NCBI RefSeq assembly: GCF_013368755.1
Contig: NC_049563.1
Coordinates: forward strand, 2,418,001 to 2,482,000
Direction of reading: 5' to 3'
Origin: Talaromyces rugulosus
Lineage: Eukaryota > Ascomycota > Eurotiomycetes > Eurotiales > Trichocomaceae
DNA: 64,000 nucleotides
The notes under the pieces are model-generated. The model did no database searches. It worked only from the letters and a program-made list of their open reading frames with translations, and was not told the DNA's origin. Positions 1 through 36,490 of this stretch are shown one piece after another (within the stretch, counting starts at the first letter, position 1; each line of letters begins with the position of its first letter). The position numbers and the translations under genes are program-made.

Positions 1-1598
1 AATTTCAGCTTCCTTCTTAACCTCCACGAGCTCAACGTCCGCATCAAGAATTTTCCGAATGAACTGGAGGCTGTATGTGACCATATTCTCGATGGCAAGT
101 ATTACAGAACTATGTCCAGTTGCTGTATTGGGGCCGAAGAGAATGAAGAAATTGGGAAAACCATCCATTGCGGTTCCTTGATATGCTTGCGGCCCATTTC
201 TTTCCTTCCACACATCCTGGATTTTGCGTCCTTCACGGCCAACAACCGAGAGAGGATGGAACCAATTGCCGATATCGAAACCGTTCGCTAGAACGATAAT
301 GTCTGCAGGAACAGTTTCTTCTTCGCCGTCTTCTAGGCCACCCCCTGCTGCACCGAGAACGAGACTTTTTGCCTGCAGTCTTTTGAGTGGTTGCTTTTTG
401 AGCGTGATCTTTTCATCGTGCAATGACTGGAACCAATACGCATCATATAATCGTCGCTTACACCCAACTTCATAGTCTGGGGTCAAGATGTCGTGGTATT
501 GGCTTGGCACCGTCTGCTTCATATGTTCCAGATATTTTTCCTGCAGCTTTCTCCTGTTGCGTGCGGCTCGCGTTGGATTGTATTCCGAGAAGAGAGTCAT
601 ATATTCAACTTCGGTTACCAGGAACATCATCGTCCTGACAATCCGGCCCAAAATCGGCCAGTTGGTGAACAATTTGGGCGCTGTGGCAGCAAACTTTTCT
701 TTACCACCCGGTTCCTTCTCTTTCGGGTGGACCCATGGTGCAGAGCGCATCACCTGGGTCACTGACTTTGCATTATAGGGTTCCTTCGTTAGAAGGGGAA
801 CAAACTGTGACGCGCTAGCGCCTGTTCCAAGTACCAAGATATTCTTACCTGCAAAGTCAATGGTCTCATCCCATCGTGATGAATGAAATATGGAGCCTTC
901 AAACTCCTCTAATCCTGGGGTATCGGCTGGAAACTCTCGGGGTTCAACAATCCCACCCACCGCACTGACGACAATCTTTGCCCGAAATTTTTCAGTATGT
1001 AAATATACCGAATCATATCCCTCGCGTTCCGCCAATTTTTCCCTGTTGCTGGCACTCAAGTCGCCCTTTCCCGTGACAAGATGACGGACAGTTACCTCCC
1101 ATAGCTCTTCATCCTCTAGCCATCGAATTTCAGTAATATCTGAATTTAACTGAATATTATCCCGTATTCCAAAATGCTGGCACACATCATGGAAGTATGT
1201 GACAATCTCATGACCTGTTGCGAAGAGAGTTTTGCCAACGTAATTCGGTTTAAACGAGAATGAATAGAGGATAGTTGGAACATCACATGCCTACAGAGTT
1301 CATTGTATCAACATACAGTGTCAGATTAGGGATGTCAAGAATAAAAAATCAATAAGAGGTTACTCTCTTTCTTTCTTTCTTTTTCATGTTATGTACTTAC
1401 AATCCCCGGATATTTGTTTATTTGCCATGTCCCACCAATTCCTGATAGACGATCAAATATGCGGAATTGGTCGAATTGAAGCTCGCTTTTTAGGCGACAC
1501 CCCATGGAGATACCTGCAGCACCAGCACCGATGACAATAACCGGAATATAGGTGAATTCGGTATCCTTAGACATGCTTTTTCCCACGGGCGGAGCCAT
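1..1598 (-). CDS. Baeyer-Villiger-type FAD monooxygenase, 3' end outside window
   Basis: Flavin- and NADPH-dependent monooxygenase, cut by the left window edge. Exon 1 (1598-1401) encodes the FAD-binding Rossmann motif GAGAAG near residue 25 and then GGTW and YPG, as in Baeyer-Villiger enzymes. An intron at 1291-1400 has donor GTAAGT. Exon 2 runs from 1290 to the edge. It carries FEGSIFHSSRWD (around 846-905), matching the family signature FxGxxxHxxxW, then a second nucleotide-binding motif GTGASA and, near the edge, ANGF and GPNTATGH. Known family members insert oxygen next to a ketone or hydroxylate small molecules. Next to P450s and a PKS-NRPS, an oxidative tailoring role is likely, but the substrate cannot be read from the sequence. 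Start chosen at the ATG just before the Rossmann fold. Confidence 0.88.
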
Positions 1599-2288
1599 AG
1601 TGAGAAGAATTTTGTAACTGGGAGGTTAAAAACAGCATGGACTTCACGTATGTACAGTGGCAAGGAGATGAGGAAGTATTGTCGCACGAAGGCGCAAGGA
1701 TTGGAAGGATTGCAATGGACTTCACATTATAGGAGCAATTATCTACTACGTAGGTACTCCGTATTATTGTGTATTATTACGATAAATAATACTGTCATAA
1801 ATTACCCCAAAATTTATCCGTGCCCTTGGTGCTTGTAATTTAAACTTAGAACGGGAAGTTACGCAACATCCAACCCCACCGCAGAAAACCAACGTATACG
1901 ATCCGATCCTGCGAGAGAGAAAAAAGGAAAAACTCAATTTCCACGATGATCTGCTTAATTGCTATATTATCTGTGGGGACATCTGTACGAGGAACTGAAC
2001 TGTCTGTACGGAGTATGCAAGTGGATTTGCTACTGCGGAAATTACCGATAGGAACCAAGTAATACAACATAACCCATTATTGAGTCTAGCCTCGCCGAGG
2101 TCACAGTGGATAGAGACCATGCCGGGAAGTTCCATTATGTAGTTGTTGGTTGTTTGGAGTGTTAGTGTTGCTCGTAGATGTCGGTCTACTAGACCTTATG
2201 ACCCCCTCTGAAAGAAGCTAGATGCAGTTTCGATTGATGAGACCCGACCTGTACAAACGACATTTGTAATTCTTCTTTTCAATCCCAC
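1599..2288. other. intergenic, divergent promoter region
   Basis: Spacer of 690 bp between the divergently transcribed monooxygenase and P450 genes, so it should hold both promoters. It is AT-rich in places. A CTTT microsatellite near 1366-1384 lies just outside it, within the monooxygenase intron. No ORF or clear regulator site was recognised. Confidence 0.5.
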
Positions 2289-4054
2289 ATGTCTTACTTG
2301 GGACCCGAATTGAACATGGAGAATTTTTCGTGGGCAGTTTTGCTGCTGGTGCCCATTTATGTGATCGTGCATTTTGTCCGTAATTACTTTGCCCTTCGAG
2401 GACGAGATTTTCCTGGTCCTTGTTTAGCCAAGTTCACCAATTTCTGGCGGCTACGCGCGGTCTACAGAGGGAACTTTGAGCACGTCCTGTATGATCTACA
2501 TTTGAAACACGGCGATGTAGTGCGCATTGGACCCCGATGCCTCAGTATCTCGAACCCGGCTGCCATCGAAGGAATATATGGAGTCAAGACTGATTTTAAA
2601 AAGGTAACGCGATATCTAGGTGTTTTTCTTTTTTCTTTTTTTTAAATCATCAGCAGCTAATAGCTCTTCTTCTCCCAGAGTGATTATTACAATGTTATGC
2701 AAGCAGTCGAAAACGGGAAAATCATCCCGACGCTTGTCACCACAAAGGAAAAGAGTGGCCATGCAGCTCTGAAGCGACCGATCGCGAGCGCGTTCAACAT
2801 GTCCAGCATGATGAAATATGAGCCATTTGTGGATGATACTATTGTCACCTTGGTTAAAAAACTCAACGAGAAATTCGTAGTCGAGGATCTACCTTGCGAG
2901 ATTCATAAATGGATTCAATACTGTGCGGTTCCTCGGAGACTTGTCTACTGGCTTGTTTTGAATGTATTTGCTGACAGGGAGAAAAATAGTTGCATTTGAT
3001 GTTACCGGAGAGCTCACCTTTAGCCGGCCCTTTGGATTTCTCCAACAAGGGAAAGACGTTGGAGGCCAAATTCAATCAGTGGTGCAGGCATTCGTCTATT
3101 TTGGTGTCGTACGTCTCTCTTTAGGACCAATTTGGTTTCTCTACTCATATTCTAGTGCTTTCCTAGGTCGGCCAAATACCTATCATTGACTATTATCTCA
3201 CTAAGCATCCTATAATCAACCGGCTCATGAAAATAAAGAATCCGTATATCGATGCAGCGACGGCTAAACTGCAGGAGCGGATGGAAGAATCAGAGGTAAT
3301 CAAGGACAACAACAGACAAGATTTGGTCAGCCAATTTCTTGAGGCCAAAGAAAAGCACCCGGGAAAAGTCACTGATCAAGAATTGATTGGCTACGTGATG
3401 ACTATGCTTATTGCAGGCAGTGATACATCCAGCGTCGGTCTCCGCGCTATGGTGTATTTCTTGGCTAAGTATCCGGATGTACAAAGACGACTTCAAGTCG
3501 AATTGGATAGTGTCGGGAATCTCAAGTTCCCAGTTGCCTGGAAAGAGACACAGAACATGCCCTACCTGGACGCGGTAATCAAGGAGTCGCTGCGTGTGCA
3601 CCCGGGTGGTTCAGTGATTCAGGAGCGAGTCGCTCCAGAGACTGGGTATCAGCTGCCTGATGGCCGCTTCGTGCCGGCAGGAACCATTGTCGGCATCGCA
3701 GGGTGGAACATCAGCCGGCGCAAAGAATTTTACGGCGATGATGTGGACACTTTCAATCCAGATCGTTGGCTACGTGGCGCCACCGAGAGTGAGGAACTTT
3801 ACCAGATACGACTGGGTGGAATGAAAAAGGCGGACATGACTTTTAGCCATGGTCCGCGTGTCTGTATTGGAAAGAACATTGCGCTGATGGAGGCCTATAA
3901 GCTGATTGCCACAATCTTCGGGCTTTTTGAAGTGCGACTTGAGAATCCCGACAAAGAGTGGACCGTGACCAGTGCCACTATGATGTCGCAGTCTGACATG
4001 GATGTCCGATTTGAATGGAGACAGGGGCATAGTGTGATTGATCTAGGGCGTTAG
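2289..4054 (+). CDS. cytochrome P450 monooxygenase A
   Basis: Microsomal class II P450, 525 aa after removing three introns (2604-2678, 2923-2977, 3109-3166). All junctions keep frame and restore conserved stretches such as FKKSDYYN and WIQYWRKIVAFDVTGEL. Residues about 12-30 form an N-terminal membrane anchor, followed by a Pro-rich hinge (DFPGP). Diagnostic motifs are the I-helix AGSDTS, the K-helix ESLR, and the heme loop FSHGPRVCIGKN with the Cys heme ligand. All key residues are present, so it should be active. Substrate unknown. It converges on P450 B, with 451 bp between them, and probably oxidises the cluster product. An in-frame ATG at 2316 is an alternative start. Confidence 0.92.
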
Positions 4055-4505: not shown

Positions 4506-6225
4506 TTAGCGTCGTCGAATTCCTAGAGAGCAACCCAGTGGTTTATGTAGGAACCCCTCTGTCGTTACCAGCTCCTCCTGGTAACACTCAAACGAATACC
4601 TCTTAAAAATGGTCGCAACAACGAGCAGTGTCTCCATCTCAGCCAGGTTTCGCCCACTGCAGGCCCGCGGACCGAAGCTGAATGGATTGAAAGCTTTCTT
4701 TTGCTCGGTCGTGAGGTAGTCAAATCGTTCCGGGCGGTATTCCATCGCATCCGGGCCCCAGATATCAGGGTCATGATGCATAGTCCAGCTGGGAATACTT
4801 AAAATGGTACGTTCCGGGAAGTGATGGCCCTGGACAGTGCAGGACGATCCTCGAGGGATTTCACGTGCAAGACCAAGAGCAGATGTGGTATGAAGGCGCA
4901 AACCTTCTTTTACTACGTTCCACAGACTACGACACATGCTGTTCAGTAAAGGGATTTTTGCAGGGGAGGGCTTCTAAATGGGACTTACTAAGGCAAGTTT
5001 TTAATTTGGGAGTACTCCGGAACTCCGTCGAGATCACCTAGCTCATGATCCAACTCGGCATGTAATTTTTTCTGCACAACTGCATCTCGGGCAATATAGA
5101 AGATGATCGGACAAAGACTATTGCTTGTAGTGTCTGCACCAGCCACTACTTGCGTCAATGCTTCAGAAATGAGCTCCTCCCGGCTCAGCGGCTTGCCGTT
5201 CTCATCCCGAGCTTCCATTAGTTTTGTCAGGAGGTCAGTCCGTTGGGATGGTTTTGCAATTCGTTCATCAACTCGGGCAGCGCCAATGCCATTGACAGTG
5301 TCCATCGCGTAGAGCCCTTGTTGGAACACTGGGTCTGGAGTCATCCGGTTAGCTTCCTTGCTGCACAGTATAATATAGTATTTGAAGATTTGACGGCATA
5401 CCGGGAATCCATTTCGCCCAGGATTTCAACTGAATCATGCAACCTAGACTGCACGTCAAATAACCTCGTTTTTCGAGAGCGTCCACTGCATTAGCAGTAG
5501 TAATGGGCGCCAACGGGTTCCGGGCATCTCTGAATTCGGCCGTGGACGAGCTATTCCGGGTCATCCCAAACGGTGCCCCGAAAGCCAAGTCCCCGATACA
5601 ATCAAAGGCGACCCAATTACACCAGTCTAGGGCATCGATAGGAGCATATGAACCACCCGCACTATGGCTGAGCCCGTCCCATTGCCGCAACAGGGCTTCA
5701 ATAGTGGATTTAACAAACGGTTCAAACTCGAGCGTAGATTTGGCACTGAATAAGTGTGACACAACCTTGCGTTTTCGTGTGTGATCTGCTCTGTTGCGGG
5801 TACTAAAGAGGCCGGGGCGGAGTGATACAAAAGCATCATAGAAGTCGCTACAGTAACATTTTAATTCCAGTTTCCCTTTTGTCACTTGTGTAGATGACGC
5901 TCCACAGAACTCTACATTGGGCGTACCTCTTTGTAAATCCATTTCCATGACCGTATATTAAGTTGACAGCATCAGGGTCAACGACCGACACATGGTTGGG
6001 TGCGATACGCACAACGGGGCCAAATCTCCGATGTGCGTCATTCACAGCGATAAACCTCCTCCCACGACGGGCTTGTAGGAAAAGCCAGATGTTTGTAAAT
6101 CTAGCTAGAAAAGGTCCTGGGATTCGTCTCAATGGCTCATTGGAGAGGTAAGGATGAACGAAATAAATCAAGACGGCGAGAACATGGACGGCCGCAGCCA
6201 AAACCGGAAAATTGAAAAAGCCCAT
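4506..6225 (-). CDS. cytochrome P450 monooxygenase B
   Basis: P450 of 507 aa in four exons (6225-5927, 5847-5402, 5334-4989, 4938-4506). Junctions were chosen to keep frame and restore P450 sequence (FTKSDFYDAF, KWIPDPVFQQG, KNLPYMCRSL). Introns are 79, 67 and 50 nt; the second has a CTAAC branch site. The start is the ATG at 6225, giving MGFF followed by a hydrophobic anchor; longer frames upstream open only with TTG. Motifs: RRIPGP hinge, I-helix AGADTTS, K-helix EGLR, heme loop FSFGPRACSGRN. It resembles P450 A in layout (for example SDFY versus SDYY at the same place), so the two may be related. It probably makes an oxidation in the same pathway; substrate unknown. Confidence 0.9.
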
Positions 6226-6574
6226 GCTGCTTGCGATGAGAGATGAGAGAGAGATTGCAATGCAGTACAGACAATTTACTACAATCCACGTTCTTTGAAG
6301 GGAATAAGGTAACTTCAATCTTACGCAGAAGTATCTAGTTGCCCGAAACGGTTAGTCATATAATTCGTATACAAAATGATCGGCAAAAAAATAACGTGGG
6401 TGGGGAACCCGGCGTGGTGGGGCGTTACTGTAATTACCACTTGTATTTGGGCGGAATTACATGAATTACATACTCTTGGCCAGCCCCAAATTGTTCTCTT
6501 GGAAAACCTTCGTATAGCGGCATTTATCAGATACCCGAAAACCACTGGGAGGATGAAAGCCTCGTAAGACAGAT

Positions 6575-7756
6575 ATGGACAGACCCACAGCTGGGGATAA
6601 AGCCACGCTCATCTGCCCCAGCTATGTGGATGGAACTGACACTGATTATTACACATTATTCGGGCTAGAAGCTATCATGGAACGACTTGACGGCGGAATT
6701 AGATACGACCTAGGCCGGGACTTCCTTGGCTCAGCTAGGCTAAACCTGCAGCATTATTTGTGGAAAGACACGCTCAATTACGATATCCATCCCAGCATTC
6801 CCGTCGCGCACGATCACCTGCGTATTGCCGACGTAGGAACTGGCACCGGGTGAATACTTCCGCTTTACCTGACCGATGCCGATATCAGATCCCATGCTGA
6901 CTGATTTATCTATGCTATTGTAGGATTTTCTTACTTGGCCTATGCCGGCGTCTTCCTCCTTCAACCTCTTTCCAAGGACTTGATGTTTCGGCTGATCAAT
7001 TCCCGAATGCCGAATGGACCCCTGCCAATGTCAGCTTTAGAAAGGTTGATGCCATGCAAGACCCGCCTGCTGATCTGCAAGGCAAATTTGACATCGTACA
7101 TCTCCGGCTATTTACATGCGTAGTGGAGAACGACGATCCACTGCCAATCCTCAGCCACTGTCTTAGTCTCTTGAGTGAGGACCCACCTTTGATGGATTGA
7201 CTAGCCTATTCCTCAGACAATACTTGCTAACCATAGACATTCATACAGAACCTGGTGGTTATCTACAATGGGATGAGTATGACTCAGGCACCACCGGAGT
7301 TATCGGAAGCACTCCCGGCGCTCCGACTCAGCTGCTCAATTCCATGCTGCAAGCAATGGGTAGCAACAGACCTCTAAGGTTAGTAGTACAGTCCGGTGAC
7401 TTGACGTTGATCTAAGACGGCATCCGCTAATACACAGTTTTCCCGACAATAGCTGGATTCCACGGTTAGATGACCTCTTCCGCGCTCAGGGCATGCAATC
7501 TGTTCAGAAAATATCTACCCGGCCCCCGCCAGAGCTTCTCAAAGCTTACACGGAGATGTTATTGGTTGCACATCTGGAACATGCCTCTCTTCACGATGCG
7601 GACGGCGCCAGCGTAGGGGGCGACCGATTGCGCAAATTAATCGGACAAGGTGCCGAGGAGATGAAGAAGGGCGGTGCTTTCAATCACATGCTGCAAGTGG
7701 TGGTAGGTAGGAAACCTTGTGTGTTCTCGGAAGGTTCCGGGGAAAAGTCGTCTTGA
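6575..7756 (+). CDS. SAM-dependent methyltransferase (UMTA/LaeA-like fold)
   Basis: Class I methyltransferase of 324 aa. Four exons: 6575-6849, 6924-7174, 7249-7378, 7438-7756; all junctions keep frame. Motif I is VGTGTG, completed across intron 1 (ADVGTGTGIFLLGL). It is followed by GLDVSADQFP (motif II region), FDIVHLRLF (motif III/IV) and LLKPGGYLQWDEYD (post-motif). This set is typical of the fungal methyltransferases found in many metabolite clusters and related in fold to LaeA. It could O- or N-methylate a pathway intermediate. The start lies 349 bp from the P450 B start, so the two share a divergent promoter. That spacer contains a GTAATTAC palindrome (6430-6437) and two adjacent GAATTACAT copies. 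A regulatory rather than metabolic role cannot be excluded. Confidence 0.87.
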
Positions 7757-8057: not shown

Positions 8058-9130
8058 CTATAGTTTCGCTTTCTCCTGGCTAACAGAACCACTACCATGA
8101 CCTTTCTGCTTTGGCTTCGCCACCGGAGTAGGCTGTAAGTACCCGCATGTACCCAGAATCTCCTTCTTTTCGTCATCGTCCAATACAATTCCAAATTCTT
8201 CTTCTAGAACGTCAATTCTCTCACTTTCAGAATGAACTGTCCTCGTCTGGAACTTCCCATGGATTCTTTTCCGTAGCTGGTTTTCCCACAGAAGAATCCA
8301 CCCTGCTGGTTTTTTCGTCTCCTCATCTAGAACGAATCGAAAAGCCATTACCTTGTACAAAAACCATGACCGTTTGTTTGTACGAATTCCCCGTTCGATT
8401 GCGGTGTAGTCTCCTTCCAGAAACTCCATTTCGGTGAAGGCGTAAGAGGTAACCCAGGGATCTTTGGCGCTGTTGCGGAACTGAATATGCCAGTATTTAA
8501 AGTCGTTCGACTTGGTCCGAGGAAGCGTGTCCGAGATAATACGTCCTCGGCGCCCGTCTAGGTCGTCAAACTCATGACCATCTTTCAACGGAACAGGGTA
8601 AATAGGGGCGTTAGGACCGAAGTTTGAATCCACCAGATACTTTTGCCCATCAATAGTAACAATAGTAATCATGTGAGACCTTTAATTATTCGCCTTGTTA
8701 GTAATATGAAACACTTCGAGGGCGATGACGCATGAACTAACCAGTCTCCAAAAGATGGTTTGGTGGGATCCTTTCCCACCGCAGCGGCACTAGTATTCAC
8801 ATTGAGTCGTGCGCATGTAGGGAAAGCATCATATCCCAGGGCGACCAGGATCTCGTAGAACATTCGGGTCACTTGAAAACACATACCACCGTGTCCTCGA
8901 CCGACAACTTTATTGTACACGTATTTGGGCGTTAACGTTAGCAGGCGGTCTGGCGTGTAGTGTAAAACGGTGTTCTCGAATGGTACTCCCGCAAGCTGGT
9001 GGTGTAGAAGTGTCGTTAATGCATCGAGGGAGTCGATCCCCCCCGCAGGTAGCATGAACTTTCGTCGCACCTCATGGGGAAGATTGATGCGGTCAAAGTA
9101 TACCTTGACATGCTGCGGTGAATAGGCCAT
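8058..9130 (-). CDS. arylamine N-acetyltransferase (NAT family)
   Basis: Acyl-CoA:arylamine N-acyltransferase, 336 aa, exons 9130-8742 and 8679-8058 with a 62-nt intron. The catalytic triad is visible. The Cys is residue 84, in GRGHGGMC. The His is in SHMITIV, restored by the splice. The Asp is in YLVDSNFG. The usual acidic residue after the Cys is Gln here (MCFQ). The C-terminal part is longer and more charged than in bacterial NATs, as is common in fungi. The family moves acetyl (or malonyl) groups from CoA to aromatic amines, oxygen or hydroxylamines. Its position 1.5 kb from an aminodeoxychorismate synthase suggests it modifies an aromatic amine made in this pathway, or protects the cell from it. 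A separate detoxification role is the alternative. Confidence 0.92.
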
Positions 9131-10589
9131 CTTGGATTCTTCGCTATAGTTTAATTTTCTAACAACACGACAACAATTTTTCAAGGAAGAAGATTTGCAT
9201 ATGATGGTAGATACCATAAAACCCCGCACTTTGGGGCTATTATATGGATTGTGGTAATTGAAGGAAAAGAATCGTTGAAACGAAATGTTACCGTTTCGAG
9301 GTTATGTAGTACCAACAACGAGGAGCTAAGGCTTCCACCGGGCATTAGGGGGAAGAAACAAAGAAAAAGGAAAAGAAAAAGGGCTAGGAAATTGTTTTAA
9401 CCATTTTCCATCAAAATGAAATTTCCCGTCGCTAGTTACTGTAACTCTATCTCGTCTCCTTTTTTTTAATACTTGTGTAAGGTTTAATTTACGTTGTAAT
9501 GTCTTGTACAACCAACCAACAACTGACAGACATTCTTTTAGCCTACCAAGATCCGCAGGAGCAGGGGTGGGGACTTGGACTGTTGGAAACTCTCGTGGAA
9601 TTAGGTCTAGAGACTAGAATTCCAAATCGAAGAACCATTTTGAATTTAGACAACTATCTTGTTTAACCATATTAAGAATTATACATTTACGTATGCGTTT
9701 TTGTCAAATGCCAGAAGATTAGTAGCACGTTCTCTAAATCCCTAAGACATAATAACGTATGTATTAATCAAACAAGGAAGGAACAGAATGCTTGTTGATA
9801 CATCGTCAACGTACGGAGTATAGATCCTGTGATTAGTTAGATCCCATTATTGACTTCGTCTAGACTCTTGGAAGTGTACTTCAAGGGGAAGCTTCGTACT
9901 CCATACCTTCCAAGGTGTAGTTAAAAGTTAATATTTTAACTTTTTAAGGTGCCCCCCGTCCCCAACATTAAACGTAATGACCGATCCACTGTTGGGGCGC
10001 GGCTGCCTATCCGGATAAACTCTAATTTTTCTCGTATCGAATCGTACGAATACTGTGTAATACACTGTAACAACATCGGAAGGATGCATTCGGATACAAC
10101 CAACATATTTCGGATTGCCACCAACCTGGACAAATATCGGAACCACCGGCGGCATTATTCCTCAATGACTAGTTTCCGCGCTTTACACTCTTCGGCCCCA
10201 AAGAGGAAGAGCCCTAGAAAAGAAAACCCGGTTGACACCGTCGTATACGCTCTATCACAGTGGATCACTGTATAACAAATATCCTTGGCGTAGGGGTGCA
10301 AGACATTTTGATGGAAGAACACACTCGGCCTTTTTTTTTTAATTATTATAGATCCATCAATTACTACGGTAACAATCTTTGCAAATATGGCCAATACATA
10401 AGCACCATTTATAATGGTGAATCCGAAGACGTAACAATTTGTCTCCGTACCACATGCCAAATAGAAGTGCTTCAACTCCCGCGTTGTTTGAGAAAGTGCT
10501 TTTAGAAAGAGAAGATTAATCTCAATCGCCTCATTCACCTTACTCGTTTATTTTCGTCGTTGTGCTCGACCTGAGCTCCCCAAATCAAC
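9131..10589. other. 1.46 kb intergenic region, divergent promoters
   Basis: Separates the divergent NAT and aminodeoxychorismate synthase genes. It is AT-rich with several short low-complexity runs, such as poly-T at 10331-10340. No ORF looked like a protein and no cluster motif TTCGGCG was found. Confidence 0.45.
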
Positions 10590-12941
10590 ATGAAGGTCAC
10601 ACCCAGAGTACTTTTCATCGATGCATACGATTCCTTTACCAATAATATAGTTGGGCTGCTCGAAAACAAATTGTATGTGGATGTGACGGTTGTCCGCATG
10701 GATGACCCATTTGTGGTCAAACATTTCCATGCCCTCCTTAAAGCTTTCGATGCCGTTGTCGTTGGGCCTGGTCCTGGGCACCCAGCACTGCCCAAGGATA
10801 TCGGAATCATTCAACAACTCTGGGAACTATCTCCGGAGGATATGCTACCAGTTTTTGGCATATGCCTCGGCTTCCAGTCTTTAGGATACGCTTTTGGTGC
10901 TAAGGTGCAACGATTGCCGTTTCCAAGACACGGTATTGTGACAAGGGTGACGCACTGCAAATCTGATATTTTCGAGACAATTTCAGAATTTGAAGCAACA
11001 CAATACCATTCTCTACACGTTGATATTGGGAAACAAGACCATGACGATTTGTGGACAATTACCACAGCATGCCCAGAATTGAAGCCGTTGGCATGGGACC
11101 TCGATGATAAGCACACAGAGCGAATCCTCATGGGACACAGGCATGTTTCAAAGCCATTTTGGGGGGTCCAATTTCACCCAGAATCGATATGTACCACAAC
11201 TGAAGGTGCAAGGGTCCTTTCAACTTGGTGGGAACATGCACAGCAATGGTCCTTTCAGAATCAAAGACGGGCCATGACTTGCGATCCAGTCTTCCAACAA
11301 CTTTTAAATATGCAATCAACCCGTGTTTTTAAAGATTCCTCAAGCAAGGTTGTATTGAACGGGAATCAAAAGTCTCAATTACGTTGGCTACAACAACGCC
11401 AAAAATCGGTACGCGTCACAGACCTGGTGGAGGCCTTGCACGCTTCACAAAGCGAGGTCATTCTTCTCGACTCGCAAGGCCACAACGCTGGTCGTTATAG
11501 TATTCTTGGAATTGTTGATACAGACCGCACCAGGAAAATCACATATAATGTCCAAAAGCATGAGCTCGTTTGCTACTTCGGCAATTTAGGGAGTCTCCGA
11601 GTTTCAGTTGATAGCCAACAACAAGTGTGGTCAATTCTTCAAGACTCTATGACGGACTTTGCAGAACTAGCCTCACCATATGGCCTACCTCAATCATCGC
11701 CGTTTTGGGGTGGGTGGATGGGCTACGTCTCCTATGAAGGCGGCTTGGAGTCAATAGGTGTTACTACTCCATGCTCTGGCGAAGAACCAGACTTTAATTT
11801 CGCATTCATCGATCGTAGCATTGTCATCGACCACGAAGAAGGACTCGTCTACATTCAATCACTCATCGCCGACGATATGTCCTGGCTTTCTCGAACCAAC
11901 GGCCTTGTATCCAGCTTGGAAGACAAACCAGCCTTGAGCCGGACTATTTCTTCCCAGAAAAAGGAAAGCTTAAACGACTGTATAAAACGTGGCCATAACT
12001 CAAAACCAGTTGAGGCAACATATCGACAAAAGGTTTTGGCGTGTCAAGCATCACTCCGCGCTGGCGATTCGTATGAATTATGTTTAACCGACGAAACGCG
12101 AATCCTCTTGCCTGTGGAAACAAACCCTTGGGAGCTTTATAAAAGCCTGCGTATCAACAATCCAGCCCCGTTTGGCACATTTATGCGACTGTCTGGCGCT
12201 ACAATTGTTGGAAGCAGTCCGGAGAGGTTCCTCCGCTGGAACCGCGACGGTCAATGTCAATTACGTCCTATTAAGGGCACTGTGCGCAAGACGCAAGATA
12301 TGACATTTGATAAAGCTAGCACCATTCTTAATTCGGCCAAAGAACGAGCAGAAAATCTGATGATTGTTGATCTAATCCGACATGATCTGAGCGGGGTCTG
12401 CGGCGCTAGGAGTTGTTCAGTTCCCCAGTTGATGCAAGTTGAGGAATATCAGACTGTTTACCAATTAGTCTCCGTCATCGAGGGGTGGCTACCCAAATAT
12501 GGTGCTTCTTCGACCACACCTACCGGAATCGACGTGCTCAAAGCTTCATTACCTCCCGGTTCTATGACGGGAGCACCCAAGAAGCGCTCTTGTGAAATAC
12601 TTGCTGATCTTGAACATCGCCATCGTGGTGTCTACTCCGGGATTCTAGGCTACATGGATGTCGGAGGCGGTGGGGATTTTTCTGTCGTCATTCGAACTGC
12701 CTTCCGATGGGATGATGAGGTAGTCTATAGACCCTCTAATGACTCGGCCACTCCAGCTACCTTCCACGTGTACCGAGTTGGCGCTGGAGGTGCAGTTACC
12801 ATTCAGAGTACAGACAAGGGGGAATTTGATGAAATGGAAACTAAACTCGACAGTGTGCTGGAGACATTTGTGGGACCCAAAGTGGACAACCAAGGTGCCA
12901 TCTCCGTGAATGGGGTCTCATCATCCAAAGAGCAATCATGA
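10590..12941 (+). CDS. aminodeoxychorismate (PABA) synthase, glutaminase-synthase fusion
   Basis: Intronless, 783 aa. The N-terminal third is a class I glutamine amidotransferase: VVGPGPGHP, nucleophile Cys92 in GICLGFQ, and the His/Glu pair in FHPES. The C-terminal two thirds is a chorismate-binding domain with FGTFMRL, GSSPERFL, PIKGTVRK, ENLMIVDLIRHDL and PPGSMTGAPK. PIKGT carries Lys562 at the position of the PabB active-site Lys. Anthranilate synthases have PIAGT there, so the enzyme should make 4-amino-4-deoxychorismate from chorismate and glutamine. The fused architecture is also the fungal PABA-synthase type rather than TrpE. No aminodeoxychorismate lyase, mutase or prephenate-dehydrogenase-like partner was found in this window. 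As a cluster gene it is probably a second copy beside the folate-pathway enzyme, supplying an arylamine building block; this is inference. Confidence 0.94.
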   Translation: MKVTPRVLFIDAYDSFTNNIVGLLENKLYVDVTVVRMDDPFVVKHFHALLKAFDAVVVGPGPGHPALPKDIGIIQQLWELSPEDMLPVFGICLGFQSLGYAFGAKVQRLPFPRHGIVTRVTHCKSDIFETISEFEATQYHSLHVDIGKQDHDDLWTITTACPELKPLAWDLDDKHTERILMGHRHVSKPFWGVQFHPESICTTTEGARVLSTWWEHAQQWSFQNQRRAMTCDPVFQQLLNMQSTRVFKDSSSKVVLNGNQKSQLRWLQQRQKSVRVTDLVEALHASQSEVILLDSQGHNAGRYSILGIVDTDRTRKITYNVQKHELVCYFGNLGSLRVSVDSQQQVWSILQDSMTDFAELASPYGLPQSSPFWGGWMGYVSYEGGLESIGVTTPCSGEEPDFNFAFIDRSIVIDHEEGLVYIQSLIADDMSWLSRTNGLVSSLEDKPALSRTISSQKKESLNDCIKRGHNSKPVEATYRQKVLACQASLRAGDSYELCLTDETRILLPVETNPWELYKSLRINNPAPFGTFMRLSGATIVGSSPERFLRWNRDGQCQLRPIKGTVRKTQDMTFDKASTILNSAKERAENLMIVDLIRHDLSGVCGARSCSVPQLMQVEEYQTVYQLVSVIEGWLPKYGASSTTPTGIDVLKASLPPGSMTGAPKKRSCEILADLEHRHRGVYSGILGYMDVGGGGDFSVVIRTAFRWDDEVVYRPSNDSATPATFHVYRVGAGGAVTIQSTDKGEFDEMETKLDSVLETFVGPKVDNQGAISVNGVSSSKEQS

Positions 12942-13351: not shown

Positions 13352-14300
13352 CTACTCTGAAATAACGCCATCGCTCAAGTACTGTCCGTGACTTGTTTTT
13401 CCTGCTGCGACCCCAGCAACGAGTGTTCGGGCCCCAATATCTGCTCTTCTACCTAAAATAGATTCTGCGCAGAATATAACCGCGCCCTTGATACCGACAA
13501 ACTCCCGGTGATTCTCGGTAATACAAAAGCCAGGGTTGGTAATGTTCACTGTGATGTCAGTGCCGAGCTCGATGGCTAGTTGTTGGGCGCAGAGAACCTG
13601 CACTAGCTTCGATATTGTGTTTCTATAGGTTTCAGTTAGATGTTTTCTTATTTTCTCCAGTCTTTTTTAAATTCCATAGGATTCAGCGGGTGCATGACGA
13701 ATATTACCTTTCTTCAGCCTTTGCCGTACTCTCCTTGCGCAGTGACTCGAGGACACTTTCACCTTCTGGCACATCCGCCCAGCCATCCAACCTTGAAAAA
13801 TGGTGCATATCGCTTCCCACAATACTCACCGTTGCAGAGCTCTTCGCCAACTTTTCTTTCAGCAGTAGGCATAGCATGACAGGTCCTATCACATGGGTCA
13901 TGATCTGAGACTCCTCGCTATTGTAAACTCTCCATTCTGCTGTAAGTATACCCGCATTCGAGATAAGACCATCGACACGGTCAAGTTCATTTTCAACGCG
14001 ACCAGCAAATGTGTTGATAGACTCGAAGGATGTGAGGTCTAATTGCCATACTTCCAACCGTGTCTGAGATGTAATGTTTTCGGCAATCCGGAGTTTCGCG
14101 GCCTCTCCCTTTGACACTGAACGACATGCGAGGATGACACGATCGGCATCTAAATTTGCGATTTGTTGCGTCGCAGAAAGTCCCAACCCAGCTGAGGCGC
14201 CTGTGATTATAATTGTCTTTCCCGTAAAGGATTCCCTGACAGGCGGCGGGGTAGTGAAAAGCTGTGTGTAGAGAAAGTTTTTGACAGGGTTCTTCGGCAT
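13352..14300 (-). CDS. short-chain dehydrogenase/reductase with altered active site
   Basis: Protein of 287 aa, exons 14300-13708 and 13622-13352, with an 85-nt intron (donor GTAATA). The Rossmann motif TGASAGLG and the NAG motif (LISNAGIL) are present, as is the active-site Ser region (SIVGSDMHHF). With the only splice that keeps the downstream frame, the residues before the active-site Lys read NTISK, so the YxxxK Tyr is Asn (codon AAC). The rest of the C-terminal half (KLVQVLCAQQLAIEL, VNITNPGF) is normal for the family. The protein may therefore be inactive or use another mechanism, unless the intron is drawn wrongly. It lies between the PABA synthase and a gene-poor AT-rich stretch. Substrate unknown. 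Confidence 0.82.
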
Positions 14301-15751
14301 CTTGTGTGGATTGGGATAAAACGAAAGTCGAGATCACATAAATTGGAGCTCTGTGTTGTAGCCAGATGTGCAATACTGAGTGTGAATCAAAAATTGTAAA
14401 TGTGCAGAAAAGCAGCGGTTACGAAAAAGAAGCGCATCAGTTTAGCCTCAACGCATGAGCAAAATTTTAGGTCAAAGCTTTAATCCGGTGCATCAACTAC
14501 ATGAAGGTGACGAAGCTGGGTGACATATCTTAGCCCCGAAAGCACTGTTACGAATCGCTGTATGTACCTGAAACTTCGTGTAACAAACACTGTGTATTGG
14601 AAAATACATGTTACGTTGGTGGTCCACATGAGAAATGCCGAGGGGAAGCAGTCACCCGCGAGCTTAATTCGGTACGAAACAGAGTTTAGGTTTTAGATCT
14701 TGCTTTATCAGTAGTACCAGAACTCGGCCATGTATGATTAAATCCTAGGGGCCGGTGGCGTATATATATGGGTGGCCTGACTATGTAAGAAGAAGCAAAT
14801 AAACTTCTAGCGCTAAGTTGGTGGGGGGGCCGTAAGGCGCCAAGCCCTTTATCGACCTGAAAATTACCGCCACCCGGAGATTATGGTCATATTCTTCATA
14901 CTTTTATGGCGACACCCTTTAACTATACGAGCGAAAAAAAACTCTGGGTAACTGGGTCCTAATGTCACTTACAAACAATACTATCAAAAACGATAACCAA
15001 ACAGAACGCCCAATGACTGAGAACTTCGATCAACATAAGAGCTTTTAAAAGACGTACCTAGATATATCAATTCAATGTTGACAGCTAATAACATCAGTAT
15101 GTATATATTTACAAAAATATACATCAATTGATATCAACACATTTCTATTTCATCAATAGGTCCATCAATTCAAAAGTCAATTTTCATTAGATTTCTATAT
15201 GAATTATATACATGTACTTGCAGAATAGTTACAAAGCTCAATATATACATGTGTCATACTAATATTGCAAAAAGTGATAATATATCGAAATTTGTTATAT
15301 TATAGTGTTTTACTATATATCAAAACATATAAACATTCTTTATTTAGTAATATATCATTGATATAGCGGTAATGATAGCACTTATTAGTTGTATGATTGT
15401 TACCTAGCCTCTCAACATTGCCACGATGTCGCCGAAATATTTGAAGGTATCCGCGTTCCAGCAAAAACTGGTATGGATATATAAAGATATTTGTTTACTA
15501 TCATATGTCTAGTTTGCCATGTTATATTTTTATATCAAATTGTAAAGTCCGGCTGGCCTAGATATCCCACCTAATTCGGATCCCCGAAGAACCCTGGAGG
15601 CGGTTTGGAAATGCATGGCGTTGACAGGCCACAATATATGCACTTACCCCTCGTTTGAACTGCGTTACATATTGCAACCCAATTAGAAATTGTGAAGCCT
15701 TCTAGACTATGCTTATAAGCTTGAGGACTGACCCAGGTTTGAGACAAGACC
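14301..15751. other. AT-rich gene-poor stretch
   Basis: About 1.4 kb without a recognisable gene. Positions about 15,050-15,560 are very AT-rich with many TATA-containing short repeats and few G or C. This fits an old repeat degraded by C-to-T mutation (RIP), but no terminal repeats or transposase remnants were recognised. Confidence 0.45.
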
Positions 15752-17743: not shown

Positions 17744-18157
17744 AAAAAGAAAACAAGAATGGCGTGTGATTTCGTGAGAAGGTGTTGTACAATCAGCAGC
17801 CAGGAAGTCTAGCCCATTTTTTAAGGAAAACATCAATCTCTAACTTGGTGATCTTTTTCAGTCCATTAAATATGTCAAATGTTTAATGGATCGAAATAAT
17901 TCTTCAAAAGAGGTTATGGCTGGATCCACCGGGCATAGATTAGCTGCTGATCTTTTCCCCCACGGTCCGTTCCGTCCACAATCTTCTTTCCGAGTACTAA
18001 CTACGCTTGCGGGTTTATTAATTATCGCGTTATATTATTACTACGTATTATTATCACATGTGCATGTGGGGGGCCCTTAGAAAGTCTAACGAATGTGATC
18101 TCGCCTTTTCCTCACGTACTTTTCTCCGCCCACAAACATCCCGACAAACTCCAAAAC
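17744..18157. other. intergenic
   Basis: Upstream region of P450 C. No ORF, repeat or TTCGGCG motif was recognised. Confidence 0.4.
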
Positions 18158-19871
18158 ATGGCTGACACGTCAGTGGTTTACCCTGTAATACGATTGATCG
18201 CTGTGCAGCTTCCTGCCTTGGTCGTTGCAGCAAGCATCCTATACGTCGCGGCAATATGCATCTATCGAGTTTATTTCCACCCGTTCGCCCATATTCCCGG
18301 TCCGTTTTTTGCGAAACTGACGGACGGATACGGGTTGTATCACTCCTGGCTAAAGAACACACATCTCACAATCCATCGTCTACATGAAGAGTATGGCACC
18401 ATTGTCCGATACGGGCCCAGCAAGATCCTTGTCAACGACGTTGATGGCATGCGAGAGATCTATGGCTACTACGCGAATTTCGCCAAGGGTAGCGCTTATG
18501 AAGTGTTGCGATTCAACCCGGTTCACAGTGTCTTCAATGCCACTGATAAAAAGATGCATCGACGAAAGAGAAGGCTTGTGGGCCAGGGATTTTCGGACAG
18601 CGCATTGAGAGCGAGTGAAAGTTGCATTCTGGAACATATGGACAATTTTGTCAACGCTTTTCTTAAATCGGATGATAGGTCCAATACGAGAACAGAGTGG
18701 TCGACGGCAAAGGATATTTCCGTACTCTGTATGAACATCCTCCCCGGAAAAAGAAGGAAATAAACGACGAGTTAACCAGAATATAGCTAGCTACTTGTCC
18801 CTCGACTTGATCACCGATCTGGTGTTTGGCAAATCCACCAGCACCCTGACCAAGCCCGAAAACCGACAATTCAGATCCCTTCTAGTGACTACTGGTTACC
18901 GCATGACCATGGCTTTCCAGATGCCCTCTGCTTTCCGCGCTGGCAAATCTGGACACTGGTTAGACCTGGGGACGTGGACACTACACAATGTAGATAAACT
19001 GCGCGCCCAATGGGCTGCCATGCTGCGAGGATGGGCCATGGACCGAATCCAAGCGGAAAAGACGCGGGCAGAAGCTTCGGAACCTGACCGGAGGGACATG
19101 ATGTCGACAATCATCAATGCCACAGATCCGGATACCGGCGAAAAACTCGACGCGGCAGAAATTGGTGCAGAGGCCTTCACATTGATCACGGCTGGCGGGG
19201 ATACCACATCCGTGGGTATTTCGGCCACGTTTTTTTATTTGTCTCGTAGCCCTGCTGCGTACGAACGATTGGTTAGCGAGATACGCACTCAGTTCCGGTC
19301 AGTAGATGATATTCGCATTGGAAGCACGCTTAGTTCCTGTCACTACCTCCGTGGTTGTATCGATGAAGCAATGCGGTTATCTCCTCCGGTATGTGTACCC
19401 TTGTATCGCGAAGCTGGACTAGGCGGCGCCACGGTGCGTGGTATCTTCGTTCCAGAGGGTTGTGTCGCAGCCACACATGCATACGCTATACATCATAACG
19501 AAAAATACTTTCCAGACGCCTACTCGTACCGTCCAGAGCGATGGCTCCCTCCGTCAAAACAAAACGGCAACGACGAAATATCAGTAACTCCTGATGCCAA
19601 ATCTGCCTTTCTCCCTTTTAGTCACGGCCCTAGGAACTGCGCCGCGATGAACATGGCATACCTGAATCTTAGCCTGTCCGTGGCGCGTCTACTATGGCTT
19701 GCTGATTTCCGGATTCCGTCGTATCCGGGTCTTGGGTGTATTGGGGGTGGGGATCCGAATAGTAAAGACCCGATGCGCAGGAGGGAGGATGAGTATCAGT
19801 TGTATGATATTTTTGCGTCGGATAAGAAAGGGCCTATGTTGGAATTCAGGCGACGGGATATCTCTATTTGA
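18158..19871 (+). CDS. cytochrome P450 monooxygenase C
   Basis: P450 of 551 aa in two exons (18158-18728, 18787-19871) with a 58-nt intron starting GTATGA. It begins with a hydrophobic anchor (residues about 15-35), then YFHPFAHIPGP. The I-helix reads AGGDTTS and the K-helix EAMR. The heme loop FSHGPRNCAAMN keeps the Cys ligand but has Ala where most P450s have Gly two residues after it. That change is tolerated in some fungal P450s, so activity is likely. It is less similar to P450s A and B than they are to each other. Probable tailoring oxidase; substrate unknown. Confidence 0.9.
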
Positions 19872-20325: not shown

Positions 20326-20880
20326 TCAAAGCTGGTCAGCCACCCAAGCCGTCACAGCTGCCAGAAACAGCACACAGACCGGAAACCCGGCCGTCCACCC
20401 TCGCTGATAATCCATCCTTAAAAACTCATTCAACGCATGCTCGCGCTTCTCCTTGGATACTTTCTCCACCATTATTGCCCTCGTCTGGAGCGGCACAAAA
20501 CCTCGGTAAATTGTATGCGGGAAGTACGCAATACTGACGATCGCGGCGATGGTGTACAGGTTTGAGGCGAGGGGCCCGACAGCACCGACACTGCCGTCGC
20601 CGAGCCAGCCCCAGAGCGTCGAGCTTCTGGCGTTGGCGAGACCGAGGAAAAAGTTGGGGATGAAAGACAGCCAGATGACGGGCAAGCTGACGAAGCGAAT
20701 GTGGTCCCACCAGCCTGGGAGGACGGCTTGGCGGGCTTCGAACGACACGGCTTTGTGCTTGAAGGCCGCGACAAATTCGTGGGAGATGTAGGAGAAAGTG
20801 CCGCTGACAGCAGCGAGGAAGATGGGGGAGATGCGAAATAGGGCGAGGCCGAGGGCTTGTTGGGAGGGGGTTAGCGTCAT
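20326..20880 (-). CDS. small integral membrane protein, about four TM segments
   Basis: Intronless, 184 aa. Hydrophobic segments lie at about residues 8-30, 65-85, 100-125 and 165-182, separated by a charged loop (VEKVSKEKREHALNEF). The size and topology resemble the fungal DUF1772 (anthrone-oxygenase-like) proteins often found in metabolite clusters, but no diagnostic residue could be confirmed, so the family is a suggestion only. The region upstream contains TTCGGCGGTCCGAA (21170-21183), an inverted repeat of the motif found at other cluster promoters, which favours membership of the pathway. Role unknown. Confidence 0.72.
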   Translation of the reverse strand: MTLTPSQQALGLALFRISPIFLAAVSGTFSYISHEFVAAFKHKAVSFEARQAVLPGWWDHIRFVSLPVIWLSFIPNFFLGLANARSSTLWGWLGDGSVGAVGPLASNLYTIAAIVSIAYFPHTIYRGFVPLQTRAIMVEKVSKEKREHALNEFLRMDYQRGWTAGFPVCVLFLAAVTAWVADQL

Positions 20881-21169
20881 GGTGGTTCAAAGGTGGTGGT
20901 TGATTGCTTGTTTTTGTTTTTATATTATTTTGCCATTCACATTGCCTCTGATCACCGTTACCGCTTCTTATATGCTCAATCAAAAGCGCGATGTGTTTTA
21001 TAGAACAATTAATCAGCTCGGGGTTCGAACGATTCGGGATCGAAAGATAGTCTTCCAACGCCGATTTCCAGTGTGAAGTCTCTACCCTCTATCAATTTCT
21101 TTTTAGTTGAACTTAATACGGCATCACGCAAGTGATCCGCGGCGGATAGAGTCAATATGTTGATGCATG

Positions 21170-21183
21170 TTCGGCGGTCCGAA
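21170..21183. promoter_or_regulatory. inverted CGG element upstream of membrane protein gene
   Basis: TTCGGCGGTCCGAA: TTCGG and CCGAA half-sites separated by 4 bp, the form expected for a dimeric Zn2Cys6 regulator. It lies about 290 bp upstream of the membrane-protein start and shares the TTCGGCG core with promoters at 34.4, 37.2 and 39.9 kb. Function is inferred. Confidence 0.45.
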
Positions 21184-33800: not shown

Positions 33801-34120
33801 TAGACGGACTCAAGCAGCAGCCTTTGCTGAGGATCGATAGCTTCAGCTTCTTTGGGTGTAATGTTGAAGAAGGCGGCATCGAAAAGCCGAATGTCCTCTT
33901 CCAGAAAGTAAGAACCTTCAACATTTGTTGTTCCATGATGCTCTGTGTCGGCGTGGTAAAAGCCATCAAGGTCAAATCGATCTGCCGGTGGTCTCCTGGA
34001 AACATCTCTGGGGGATAGCAGGAGTTTCCACAGCTTGGATGGCGAGCTCGCATTGCCAGGAAAACGACAGCTACTGCCAATGATGGCAATGGGTTCGTTC
34101 AATGGTGTTGAGTAAGACAT
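21831..34120 (-). CDS. hybrid polyketide synthase-NRPS megasynthase
   Basis: Core enzyme, about 3,950 aa. Exons: 34120-33159, 33107-33002, 32945-32734, 32672-30402, 30345-27569, 27500-27452, 27401-27077, 27030-26439, 26389-21831. KS: Cys181 in DTACSSSL, His in EAHGTG and GHTEG. AT: GHSSGE, Ser near 656. [12 protein letters not shown] near 980, but the usual LDxxxQ reads IESCIQ near 1169 (Asp to Glu). MT: SAM motif I reads EIGSNHLG near 1432. KR near 2080-2300: glycine loop absent and the Tyr of the usual SNYTAAN is Ile (ESEITAV). ACP: GIDSL, Ser near 2400. C: HHIIMDG near 2643. [12 protein letters not shown] near 3121. T: GGNSLL near 3537. R: TGSTGFLG near 3630 with YVAAK near 3781. No ER domain. 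An in-frame ATG at 34249 is an alternative start. Expected product: an aminoacyl polyketide released by reduction or cyclisation. Confidence 0.93.
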
Positions 34121-34249
34121 GATGAAATCCTCTATGGAAGTTTTGGGAGGACGGGAATCACGACAGGCCTCCGAAAAATCTAACTTCATTGACCACGTAT
34201 ACAAATAGGCTGTGTAGTTCTGGAATGGATCGAGCGACGACTTAATCAT

Positions 34250-34754
34250 CAGAGAAACGTAAATGCTGATAAAAAGTCTTATACAAGTATTTCCTAAACT
34301 AGTTAGATCATCGGCGACTACAGCTCGGACCTAGTCTCTGCAAAGCCGATAACGGTCAAGGCTATCGGCTACGAGGCAAGACTACATCTCCCAGACCGGA
34401 TGTGCGAATTTCCAAGAGAACGCCGAACATTCTAGATTCCTTGATCTCCCACTGACCGGACAAGAAAGCGAGATGTCAGCTTGAGCTCTCGCACCGCCGA
34501 AAATGAGCAGAAGGCTAGTGCGATCGTTATCAACAGCATCCAACAGGCTTATTCGATCATAACTCACCCTCCTCAGCGTATATAGAACCTTTGCGAACCG
34601 CGCCGCTCATTCCTTCCACTATACGATATAGAGCACGCCGTCTACTCATTTGTCGACCAGGCAGTTGCCCAGGTGGTTCAGCAATCCAAAAGCTGCTATG
34701 GTTTTCTAGCCAATGGGAAGTACGCTTCGGAGCTAGGAAAGTAGTGTGAATAGA
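34250..34754. promoter_or_regulatory. PKS-NRPS promoter region with two CGCCGAA sites
   Basis: Upstream region of the megasynthase, following regulator 1 on the same strand. It contains CGCCGAACAT (34421-34430) and CGCCGAAA (34495-34502), about 300 and 375 bp before the start codon. The same core occurs at the EthD/MFS and hydrolase promoters. Regulation by one of the two Zn2Cys6 proteins is inferred, not shown. Confidence 0.5.
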
Positions 34755-35951: not shown

Positions 35952-35966
35952 AGTGACGCCGGCCAA

Positions 35967-36490
35967 AAAAGTGTGTCACACTGTGAACGGCACGCGTAAA
36001 TGTGGGAGCGTGCTTGATCAGTTCGCGATGAGTATAGGATGTTGGGAGGAAAGGAGGTGGTAAAACGAGGAGCTGAGCGGCACTAGCGGTGGCGACAGCC
36101 GCTAACGTCTGGTAAGGTCGGATCCCCCCGCACGTGCCGTCACCCAGCTCCACCACTACTTCTAGTCTGCGTATCAATTGATGGGCTTAGGAAATATCTA
36201 ACTTTAAGGCTAGAATTATATTTAATTATGTAGAGACATTAGAAATTACAGTATAGATTGGAACTTTTATAACTTTTACATAATTAGCTAACCTTGGCCT
36301 TTATAAATTTAAAATTTTGGCTATTTTTACCCTTTTTTAATAGTTTTCACAGGGAGAATTTTTTTGGTGTACATGAAGCCACCATGAGGATAAACCTTTG
36401 TTCTCGCACACGGTGACTCGGTTTGTGTATTGCTCGTTATGATAGGTTTGATATGAGATTGTAGCATATATGCAGGTCCTACGTAGCCTC
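35967..36490. other. intergenic, part AT-rich
   Basis: Upstream region of regulator 1 and 3' side of EthD 1. Positions about 36,190-36,350 are AT-rich and look like degraded repeat sequence. No gene seen. Confidence 0.4.

What the first reader, a model, noticed from the sequence alone, without database searches (positions are those of the whole stretch)
8058..12941. PABA-type synthase plus arylamine N-acetyltransferase inside a PKS-NRPS neighbourhood
Seen: PIKGT (Lys562) marks an aminodeoxychorismate synthase rather than an anthranilate synthase, and a neighbouring NAT has its full Cys-His-Asp triad. Known: aminodeoxychorismate leads to PABA or, with mutase and dehydrogenase partners, p-aminophenylalanine; NATs acylate arylamines. 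Inference: the pathway makes and masks an aromatic amine. I know of no described fungal PKS-NRPS pathway with this pair, but could not search.
Basis: partly seen in the sequence, partly recalled or inferred. Interest (0 to 1): 0.78.

Follow-up and report, generated by a model that had tools for sequence, protein, structure and literature searches.

The report
Spare PABA synthase beside fungal PKS-NRPS
A Talaromyces-like mould carries an extra, distantly related copy of the enzyme that starts PABA synthesis, back to back with an arylamine-acylating enzyme and amid other accessory metabolic genes, which hints at a hidden aromatic-amine product, although its link to the large PKS-NRPS enzyme next door is unproven.

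Summary
Window 10590-12941 (+) encodes an intact fused PabA-PabB aminodeoxychorismate synthase (ADCS) with Lys562 in PIKGT, above the curated fungal-ADCS cut-off (680 against 443 bits). Divergent from it, 9130-8058 (-) encodes an arylamine N-acetyltransferase (NAT) with one 62-base intron and an aligned Cys-His-Asp triad.

It is not the folate gene. The genome gives three ADCS genes: the Eurotiales folate ortholog on C2, this one (38% identical to it), and one on C5 beside a carboxylate-reductase-like A-T-R gene. In trees the window copy lies outside the Eurotiales folate clade.

The proposed pathway is only partly supported. A kinase gene and repeat debris separate ADCS/NAT from the PKS-NRPS. 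A motif of PKS-NRPS-side promoters (five sites, 21-43 kb) is absent near ADCS/NAT, though a weaker one, CGGN6CCG, lies on both sides. No linked mutase for p-aminophenylalanine was found. The A domain keeps Asp235 and resembles PsoA, so it should load an alpha-amino acid, not PABA.

Best reading: a separate accessory module making a PABA-type arylamine. Conservation of the pair elsewhere could not be tested.

The parts
1..1290 (-). FMO-like / N-monooxygenase-like flavoprotein; its frame runs on to 104 bases before the window
   Evidence: PF00743 and PF13434 above cut-off
2241..4054 (+). cytochrome P450 (a)
   Evidence: PF00067 on 3167-4051; the first exon 2241-2642 is assigned by eye, no Pfam hit
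4506..6351 (-). cytochrome P450 (b)
   Evidence: PF00067 on 4509-4973 and 5352-5957; exon 5848-6351 by eye, no Pfam hit
6557..7756 (+). SAM-dependent methyltransferase, several exons
   Evidence: weak Methyltransf_12/25 hits below cut-off on 6901-7197 only; exons joined by eye
8058..9130 (-). arylamine N-acetyltransferase, intron 8680-8741
   Evidence: PF00797 in both exons; splice and triad
10590..12941 (+). bifunctional aminodeoxychorismate synthase (PabA-PabB fusion), second-lineage copy
13352..14333 (-). short-chain dehydrogenase, two exons
   Evidence: PF00106 on the first exon; second exon by eye, no Pfam hit
15159..15542 (.). short degenerate repeats with counterparts at 13 other places in the genome
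   Evidence: 14 other places for the whole 14340-16240 query, 13 of them in this stretch, 65-84% identity
16273..17743 (+). protein-kinase gene
   Evidence: weak PF00069 hits, below cut-off, on two exons; reading frame by eye
17951..19871 (+). cytochrome P450 (c)
   Evidence: PF00067 above cut-off on 18735-19868, below it on 17951-18760
20326..20886 (-). small membrane-protein-like ORF, no Pfam family
21831..34330 (-). PKS-NRPS hybrid: KS-AT-DH-MT-KR-ACP-C-A-T-R
   Evidence: KR weak
34755..35975 (-). Zn2Cys6 regulator
   Evidence: PF00172
36491..37182 (-). EthD-domain-like protein
   Evidence: PF07110, just below cut-off, on 36494-36874
37396..39452 (+). MFS efflux pump (TRI12-like)
   Evidence: PF06609 on 38295-39449; first exons by eye
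40062..41453 (+). FrsA-like alpha/beta hydrolase
   Evidence: PF12697 above cut-off, PF06500 just below; NF003460 FrsA far below cut-off
42126..42861 (+). EthD-domain protein
   Evidence: PF07110 above cut-off on 42529-42858
46133..47835 (+). second Zn2Cys6 regulator
   Evidence: PF00172 on 46133-46603
21170..21178 (-). ACCGCCGAA site 1 (further sites 34493-34501, 37248-37256, 43375-43383; CCGCCGAA alone at 39858-39865)

Best explanation
The ADCS at 10590-12941 is a dedicated copy for specialised metabolism, not for folate. Shown: the gene is intact, it is one of three distinct ADCS genes in this genome, and it stands head to head with a NAT inside a run of oxidases, a probable methyltransferase and an SDR. 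Inferred: it turns chorismate into aminodeoxychorismate, the cell's ordinary lyase gives PABA, and the neighbouring FMO/P450/methyltransferase/SDR/NAT modify and N-acylate the arylamine. Inferred, from the gap and from promoter motifs: this module (about 2.5 kb before the window to 14.3 kb) is a neighbour of the PsoA-like PKS-NRPS cluster (about 20-47 kb), not part of its pathway.
For: Three ADCS genes and one TrpE (TrpE by its PIAGT). C2 is the Eurotiales folate ortholog (90% to T. islandicus, 95% to an unnamed jgi protein) with housekeeping neighbours. The window copy is 38% identical to it and falls outside that clade: it groups 99/97 with three unnamed proteins, and holding it with the Eurotiales is rejected at p-AU 0.016. 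Marker motif: PIKGT in 118 of 119 listed relatives of the window copy, PMKGT in 120 of 120 listed relatives of the folate copy. Strong constraint: 1 of 155 near-invariant columns departs. Neighbours. PKS-NRPS-side motif ACCGCCGAA: 4 sites, all at 21.2-43.4 kb, 0 of 100 shuffles reach 4; CCGCCGAA: 5 sites, all there, 0 of 100 shuffles reach 5; none left of 21 kb in the window. Repeat debris between the blocks.
Against: CGGN6CCG, a possible Zn2Cys6 site, occurs once each in the FMO/P450a, NAT/ADCS, P450c, small-ORF and regulator-1 promoters, that is on both sides (5 found, 1.83 expected; the best of 16 spacings tried), which would fit joint control. Fungal clusters can have gaps and genes without the regulator's site, so absence of a motif is weak; the P450 at 18-19.9 kb also lacks ACCGCCGAA. 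That motif was picked after looking, and another group of four sites exists at C1:2245578-2265208 (100 of 274 places listed). No core synthase or regulator of its own was found for the left module (11 of 40 upstream frames scanned, the longest ones among them). A shared 10-mer of its promoters (GTACGGAGTA) is a genome-wide common element (460 against 52 for the reversed control). PABA is a poor substrate of tested fungal NATs (PMC4542470, passage). No expression data.
Confidence: 0.42

Rival explanations
1. One reading: the ADCS supplies an aromatic amine (p-aminophenylalanine, or PABA) to the PKS-NRPS product and the NAT acylates the amine.
For: The ADCS ends 8.9 kb from the PKS-NRPS stop codon. 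CGGN6CCG sites lie in promoters on both sides. The A domain keeps Asp235 (alpha-amino acid) and aligns best with PsoA. Read by hand against PsoA, the position recalled as 239 changes from Tyr to Ala, which would open the pocket towards the para position. R domain keeps the GxTGxxG and YxxxK motifs, fitting a reductive release.
Against: No mutase in the window and one PF01817 match in the genome, far away; PKS-NRPS-side motif ACCGCCGAA absent from NAT/ADCS; kinase and repeats in between. The prephenate-dehydrogenase search found nothing, not even the housekeeping gene expected there, so it says nothing either way.
Confidence: 0.22
2. Extra PABA capacity or a neutral passenger: the ADCS is an acquired spare for folate, and its neighbours are unrelated accessory genes.
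For: Catalytic residues and near-invariant columns kept; no proven functional link to any neighbour.
Against: A folate ortholog is already present; the divergent lineage and company of tailoring enzymes are unlike the housekeeping neighbours of C2.
Confidence: 0.24
3. Self-resistance copy: a nearby pathway makes an inhibitor of ADCS and the window copy is the insensitive version, as in resistance-gene-guided mining of fungal clusters.
For: A housekeeping enzyme duplicated next to a core synthase is the pattern used for such mining (PMC12616698, passages). Bacterial abyssomicins inhibit the chorismate-folate route (PMC6100094, search listing only).
Against: Only W728Y departs among 155 near-invariant columns; a third copy exists elsewhere; does not explain the NAT.
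Confidence: 0.08

Closest known systems
Fungal folate ADCS PabaA (TIGR01823; Eurotiales orthologs)
   Same: Same fused GATase-PabB layout, same catalytic residues, above the curated cut-off
   Different: Separate lineage (PIKGT, not PMKGT), 38% identity to the genome's own folate copy, accessory neighbourhood
Bacterial fused ADCS (best PDB match 8hx6; that it belongs to chloramphenicol-type metabolism is recalled)
   Same: Fused PabA-PabB; chorismate to aminodeoxychorismate for specialised metabolism
   Different: Bacterial clusters add a mutase and a dehydrogenase for p-aminophenylalanine (recalled); no linked mutase found here
Fungal NAT genes in biosynthetic clusters (PMC11213898, Table 1)
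   Same: A NAT gene located in or by a PKS-type cluster in Eurotiomycetes
   Different: None of the 16 rows is typed as a PKS-NRPS hybrid, though one row is typed NRPS, T1PKS, Terpene, one (A. udagawae) shows 28% similarity to an entry naming NG-391 and lucilactaene, and the text speaks of PKS or PKS hybrid clusters. 'chorismate' and 'aminobenzo' have 0 hits in its main text
Pseurotin synthetase PsoA
   Same: Best solved relative of the window's A domain (472 bits); PKS-NRPS layout
   Different: Pocket positions differ by hand reading; the rest of the protein and the cluster were not compared
C5 ADCS of the same genome with an A-T-R reductase and a GMC oxidoreductase
   Same: Non-folate ADCS in an accessory neighbourhood
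   Different: Not sister to the window copy (p-AU 1.4e-06); none of the genome's three NAT genes lies there

Membership tests
Fungal aminodeoxychorismate synthase (TIGR01823) | Curated score cut-off 442.55 bits over the full fused protein | tested here: met
   680.2 bits, residues 6-761
Fungal aminodeoxychorismate synthase (TIGR01823) | Catalytic Lys in PxKGT (Ala in anthranilate synthase) | tested here: met
   Lys562; the genome's TrpE has PIAGT
Fungal aminodeoxychorismate synthase (TIGR01823) | Enzyme activity on chorismate and glutamine | not testable with these tools
   needs protein
Eurotiales folate PabaA ortholog | Placed in the Eurotiales folate clade | tested here: not met
   p-AU 0.016; the C2 copy is the ortholog
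Arylamine N-acetyltransferase (PF00797) | Family profile and Cys-His-Asp triad | tested here: met
Arylamine N-acetyltransferase (PF00797) | Acts on an arylamine made by the neighbouring ADCS | not testable with these tools
   no biochemistry; PABA a poorer substrate of tested fungal NATs (PMC4542470, passage)
p-Aminophenylalanine pathway (PapABC type) | Chorismate-mutase-like partner linked to the ADCS | tested here: not met
   one PF01817 match in the genome, at C3:1009011; a very divergent mutase could be missed
p-Aminophenylalanine pathway (PapABC type) | Prephenate-dehydrogenase-like partner | tested here: inconclusive
   0 matches in the genome, though a housekeeping one is expected
Gene of the window's PKS-NRPS cluster | Shares the regulatory motif of the cluster's promoters | tested here: inconclusive
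   0 of 5 CCGCCGAA sites lies left of 21 kb, but CGGN6CCG occurs on both sides, 5 against 1.83 expected
Gene of the window's PKS-NRPS cluster | Kept together in other species | not testable with these tools
   no fungal genomes with context available
Self-resistance duplicate | Changed inhibitor or active site | tested here: inconclusive
   1 departure in 155 near-invariant columns; no ligand known

The most novel reading that the evidence does not exclude
This genome has taken a folate-route enzyme into accessory chemistry twice, by two separate lineages (window copy and C5 copy). The window copy feeds a fungal PKS-NRPS or its neighbour module with a para-amino aromatic unit whose amine is capped by the NAT.
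Probability: 0.2. Interest if true: 0.75.

Novelty: new variant of a known kind. Interest (0 to 1): 0.5.

Why it matters
If true, it gives a handle on fungal arylamine natural products made from chorismate by the PABA route, known to me mainly from bacteria (recalled). It also offers two ADCS loci in one genome to test how a vitamin enzyme is recruited to accessory chemistry. Eight paper searches on this matter showed, among the listed titles and abstract starts, no fungal cluster with a dedicated ADCS; several lists were capped (20 of 847; 15 of 18), most of the listed papers were not opened, and subscription journals are mostly not in that library.

Tried and rejected
Sole folate gene: rejected. 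Anthranilate synthase: rejected (PIKGT; the genome's TrpE has PIAGT). PABA loaded directly by the NRPS module: disfavoured because Asp235 is kept (pocket read by hand, position numbers recalled). A core synthase just upstream for the left module: none seen among the 11 scanned of 40 upstream frames of 120 aa or more; the nearest is a PKS (KR-ACP-R seen) 26.8-30 kb upstream. Zn2Cys6 palindromes CGGNxCCG: of 16 spacings the best was CGGN6CCG, 5 found against 1.83 expected, on both sides; not convincing after 16 trials, but it counts against two separate regulons. Window copy and C5 copy as sisters: rejected. ADC lyase: 13 PF01063 matches in the genome, none in the window nor beside the C5 copy. 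Locus-tag trick for NAT/ADCS linkage in other fungi: failed, the NAT search gave only 8 hits of 1151 candidates, and the two nearest are second-exon fragments of unnamed organisms.

Full report
What is there. The frame at 10575-12941 (+) is a complete fused aminodeoxychorismate synthase (ADCS) with glutaminase, N-terminal and chorismate-binding domains. It scores 680 bits against the fungal ADCS model with a cut-off of 443. Lys562 in PIKGT aligns with the PIKGT of E. coli PabB. On the other strand, 9130-8058 is a NAT with one 62-base intron; both other NAT genes of the genome are split at about the same place (by eye). Its Cys84, His132 and Asp147 align with those of the solved arylamine N-acetyltransferase 7qi3. 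The two genes are divergent with 1.46 kb of upstream DNA between them, for which no other match was found in the genome (that search skips very common words).

Is it the folate gene? No. A whole-genome search gives four chorismate-binding genes: one TrpE and three ADCS. The C2 copy is 90% identical to T. islandicus and 95% to an unnamed jgi protein, 53-74% to the other named relatives of the 120 listed (all from Eurotiales genera, as I know them), and stands near Trs120, a WD40 protein and a lyase: the folate ortholog. The window copy is 38% identical to it and 41% to the C5 copy. Its own listed relatives are at most 53% identical (4329 hits of 7998 scored, best 120 listed, the first being the window's own protein). 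All 120 listed relatives of the C2 copy have PMKGT; 118 of 119 listed relatives of the window copy have PIKGT, one has neither.

Trees. A quick tree of 82 rows (the 3 own copies and 79 of 239 fetched relatives) and a careful tree of 40 rows (3 and 37 of 239) both put the window copy outside the Eurotiales folate clade. It groups with three unnamed proteins (98, 99/97), among ADCS of Sordariomycetes, Dothideomycetes and others (classes recalled from the names). Holding it with the Eurotiales is rejected at p-AU 0.016, and holding it with the C5 copy at 1.4e-06. The C5 copy has a long branch and an unsure place. The trees are unrooted, so transfer from another class and an old duplication both remain open. 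Against 237 relatives (239 minus 2 of odd length) the window copy departs from 1 of 155 near-invariant columns, the C5 copy from 9 and the C2 copy from 0. The window copy therefore looks like a working enzyme.

The surroundings. Left of the ADCS lie, outwards, the NAT, a probable methyltransferase (weak hit), two P450s, an FMO-like flavoprotein and an OPT transporter whose main exon is 0.9-2.5 kb before the window; right of it an SDR. From 14.3 to 16.2 kb the DNA is AT-rich, with short repeats; the stretch has 14 other matches in the genome. Then come a kinase gene, a third P450, a small ORF without a family, and the PKS-NRPS at 21.8-34.3 kb. Beyond it lie a regulator, EthD-type proteins, an MFS pump, an FrsA-like hydrolase and a second regulator.

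One cluster or two? I compared 14 promoter regions, set by approximate gene models. One GC-rich 9-mer, ACCGCCGAA, occurs in four of them, all on the PKS-NRPS side; a simulation gave any such 9-mer in 1 of 100 sets. In the window it occurs 4 times (shuffles: mean 0.39, none of 100 reached 4), and its core CCGCCGAA 5 times (mean 1.27, none of 100 reached 5), all at 21.2-43.4 kb. In 90 kb of other DNA of this genome the core occurs 3 times, one of these about 9.3 kb before the window. Genome-wide the 9-mer occurs 274 times, so four in 22 kb is unlikely by a Poisson count (3e-5). But the motif was picked after looking, and one other group of four appears in the 100 places listed (C1:2245578-2265208). 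The promoters of FMO, P450s, methyltransferase, NAT, ADCS and SDR have none. This argues, moderately, that the PKS-NRPS regulon ends near 21 kb. Against it: CGGN6CCG, the best of 16 palindrome spacings, occurs in five promoters on both sides, FMO/P450a and NAT/ADCS among them (1.83 expected). No convincing motif unites the left genes alone: GTACGGAGTA is shared by three of six regions taken as promoters but is common in the whole genome (460 against 52 for the reversed control).

Chemistry. The A domain matches PsoA of pseurotin best and keeps the Asp that binds the amino group of alpha-amino acids, so PABA is not its likely substrate. Read by hand against PsoA, the position recalled as 239 is Ala instead of Tyr, which could admit a larger or para-substituted ring; this is weak. 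p-Aminophenylalanine would need a mutase and a dehydrogenase (recalled). The only chorismate-mutase match in the genome is elsewhere. The dehydrogenase search is uninformative, since it missed even the expected housekeeping gene. PABA needs only the ordinary lyase; 13 class-IV aminotransferase matches exist in the genome, none in the window. Tested fungal NATs used PABA poorly (PMC4542470, passage), so the acylated amine may be a modified one.

A second ADCS in accessory DNA. The C5 copy (C5:5251602-5254070, 89 kb from the contig end) lies beside an A-T-R gene of the carboxylate-reductase type, a GMC oxidoreductase and a Ty3-like retrotransposon. Of its A-T-R, 752 residues of a 991-residue frame were compared with solved structures; at 1e-15 or better only a reductase domain, 8aep, matches. 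Two non-sister ADCS in accessory neighbourhoods of one genome is the most unexpected result here.

Literature. PMC11213898 (section 7 and passages) lists 16 fungal NAT genes in predicted clusters, mostly PKS; none is typed a PKS-NRPS hybrid, but one row is typed NRPS, T1PKS, Terpene and one is 28% similar to an entry naming NG-391 and lucilactaene (PKS-NRPS products, recalled). Its main text has no hit for 'chorismate' or 'aminobenzo'. PMC12616698 (passages) describes mining by resistance genes, the basis of one rival. PMC9605436 (passages) sorts fungal carboxylate reductases and has no hit for 'aminobenzo'. The searches named under Why it matters showed no fungal cluster with a dedicated ADCS among the papers listed.

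Verdict. That it serves accessory chemistry is likely but not shown. That it works with the PKS-NRPS is possible and, on balance, less likely than a separate neighbouring module.

Noticed in passing
L017:6602-9070 and L017:9285 to L018:2257 (C5:5251602-5257257): A third ADCS (823-aa frame) convergent with an A-T-R carboxylate-reductase-like gene, near a GMC oxidoreductase and a Ty3-like retrotransposon, 89 kb from a contig end; a candidate PABA-derived pathway of its own.
   Followed up: partly
L028:1-3216 (26.8-30 kb before the window): End of another PKS with KR, ACP and a terminal reductase domain.
   Followed up: no
window 48827-51555 and 60934-62601: NACHT-type (NPHP3_N) plus ankyrin frames, and a weak SesA-like match below cut-off: NLR-like fungal genes beyond the PKS-NRPS cluster; a HECT-domain gene at 63180-63998.
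   Followed up: no
window 26978-27439: The PKS KR piece scores below cut-off and seems by eye to lack the usual catalytic Tyr/Asn motif, so beta-keto reduction may be lost.
   Followed up: no
window 13352-13666: The SDR beside the ADCS seems by eye to have Asn where the YxxxK tyrosine is expected.
   Followed up: no
whole genome; window 2006 and 9811: GTACGGAGTA is about nine times commoner in the genome than its reversed control (460 against 52).
   Followed up: partly
C1:2245578-2265208: A second group of four ACCGCCGAA sites within 20 kb, possibly another regulon of the same kind.
   Followed up: no
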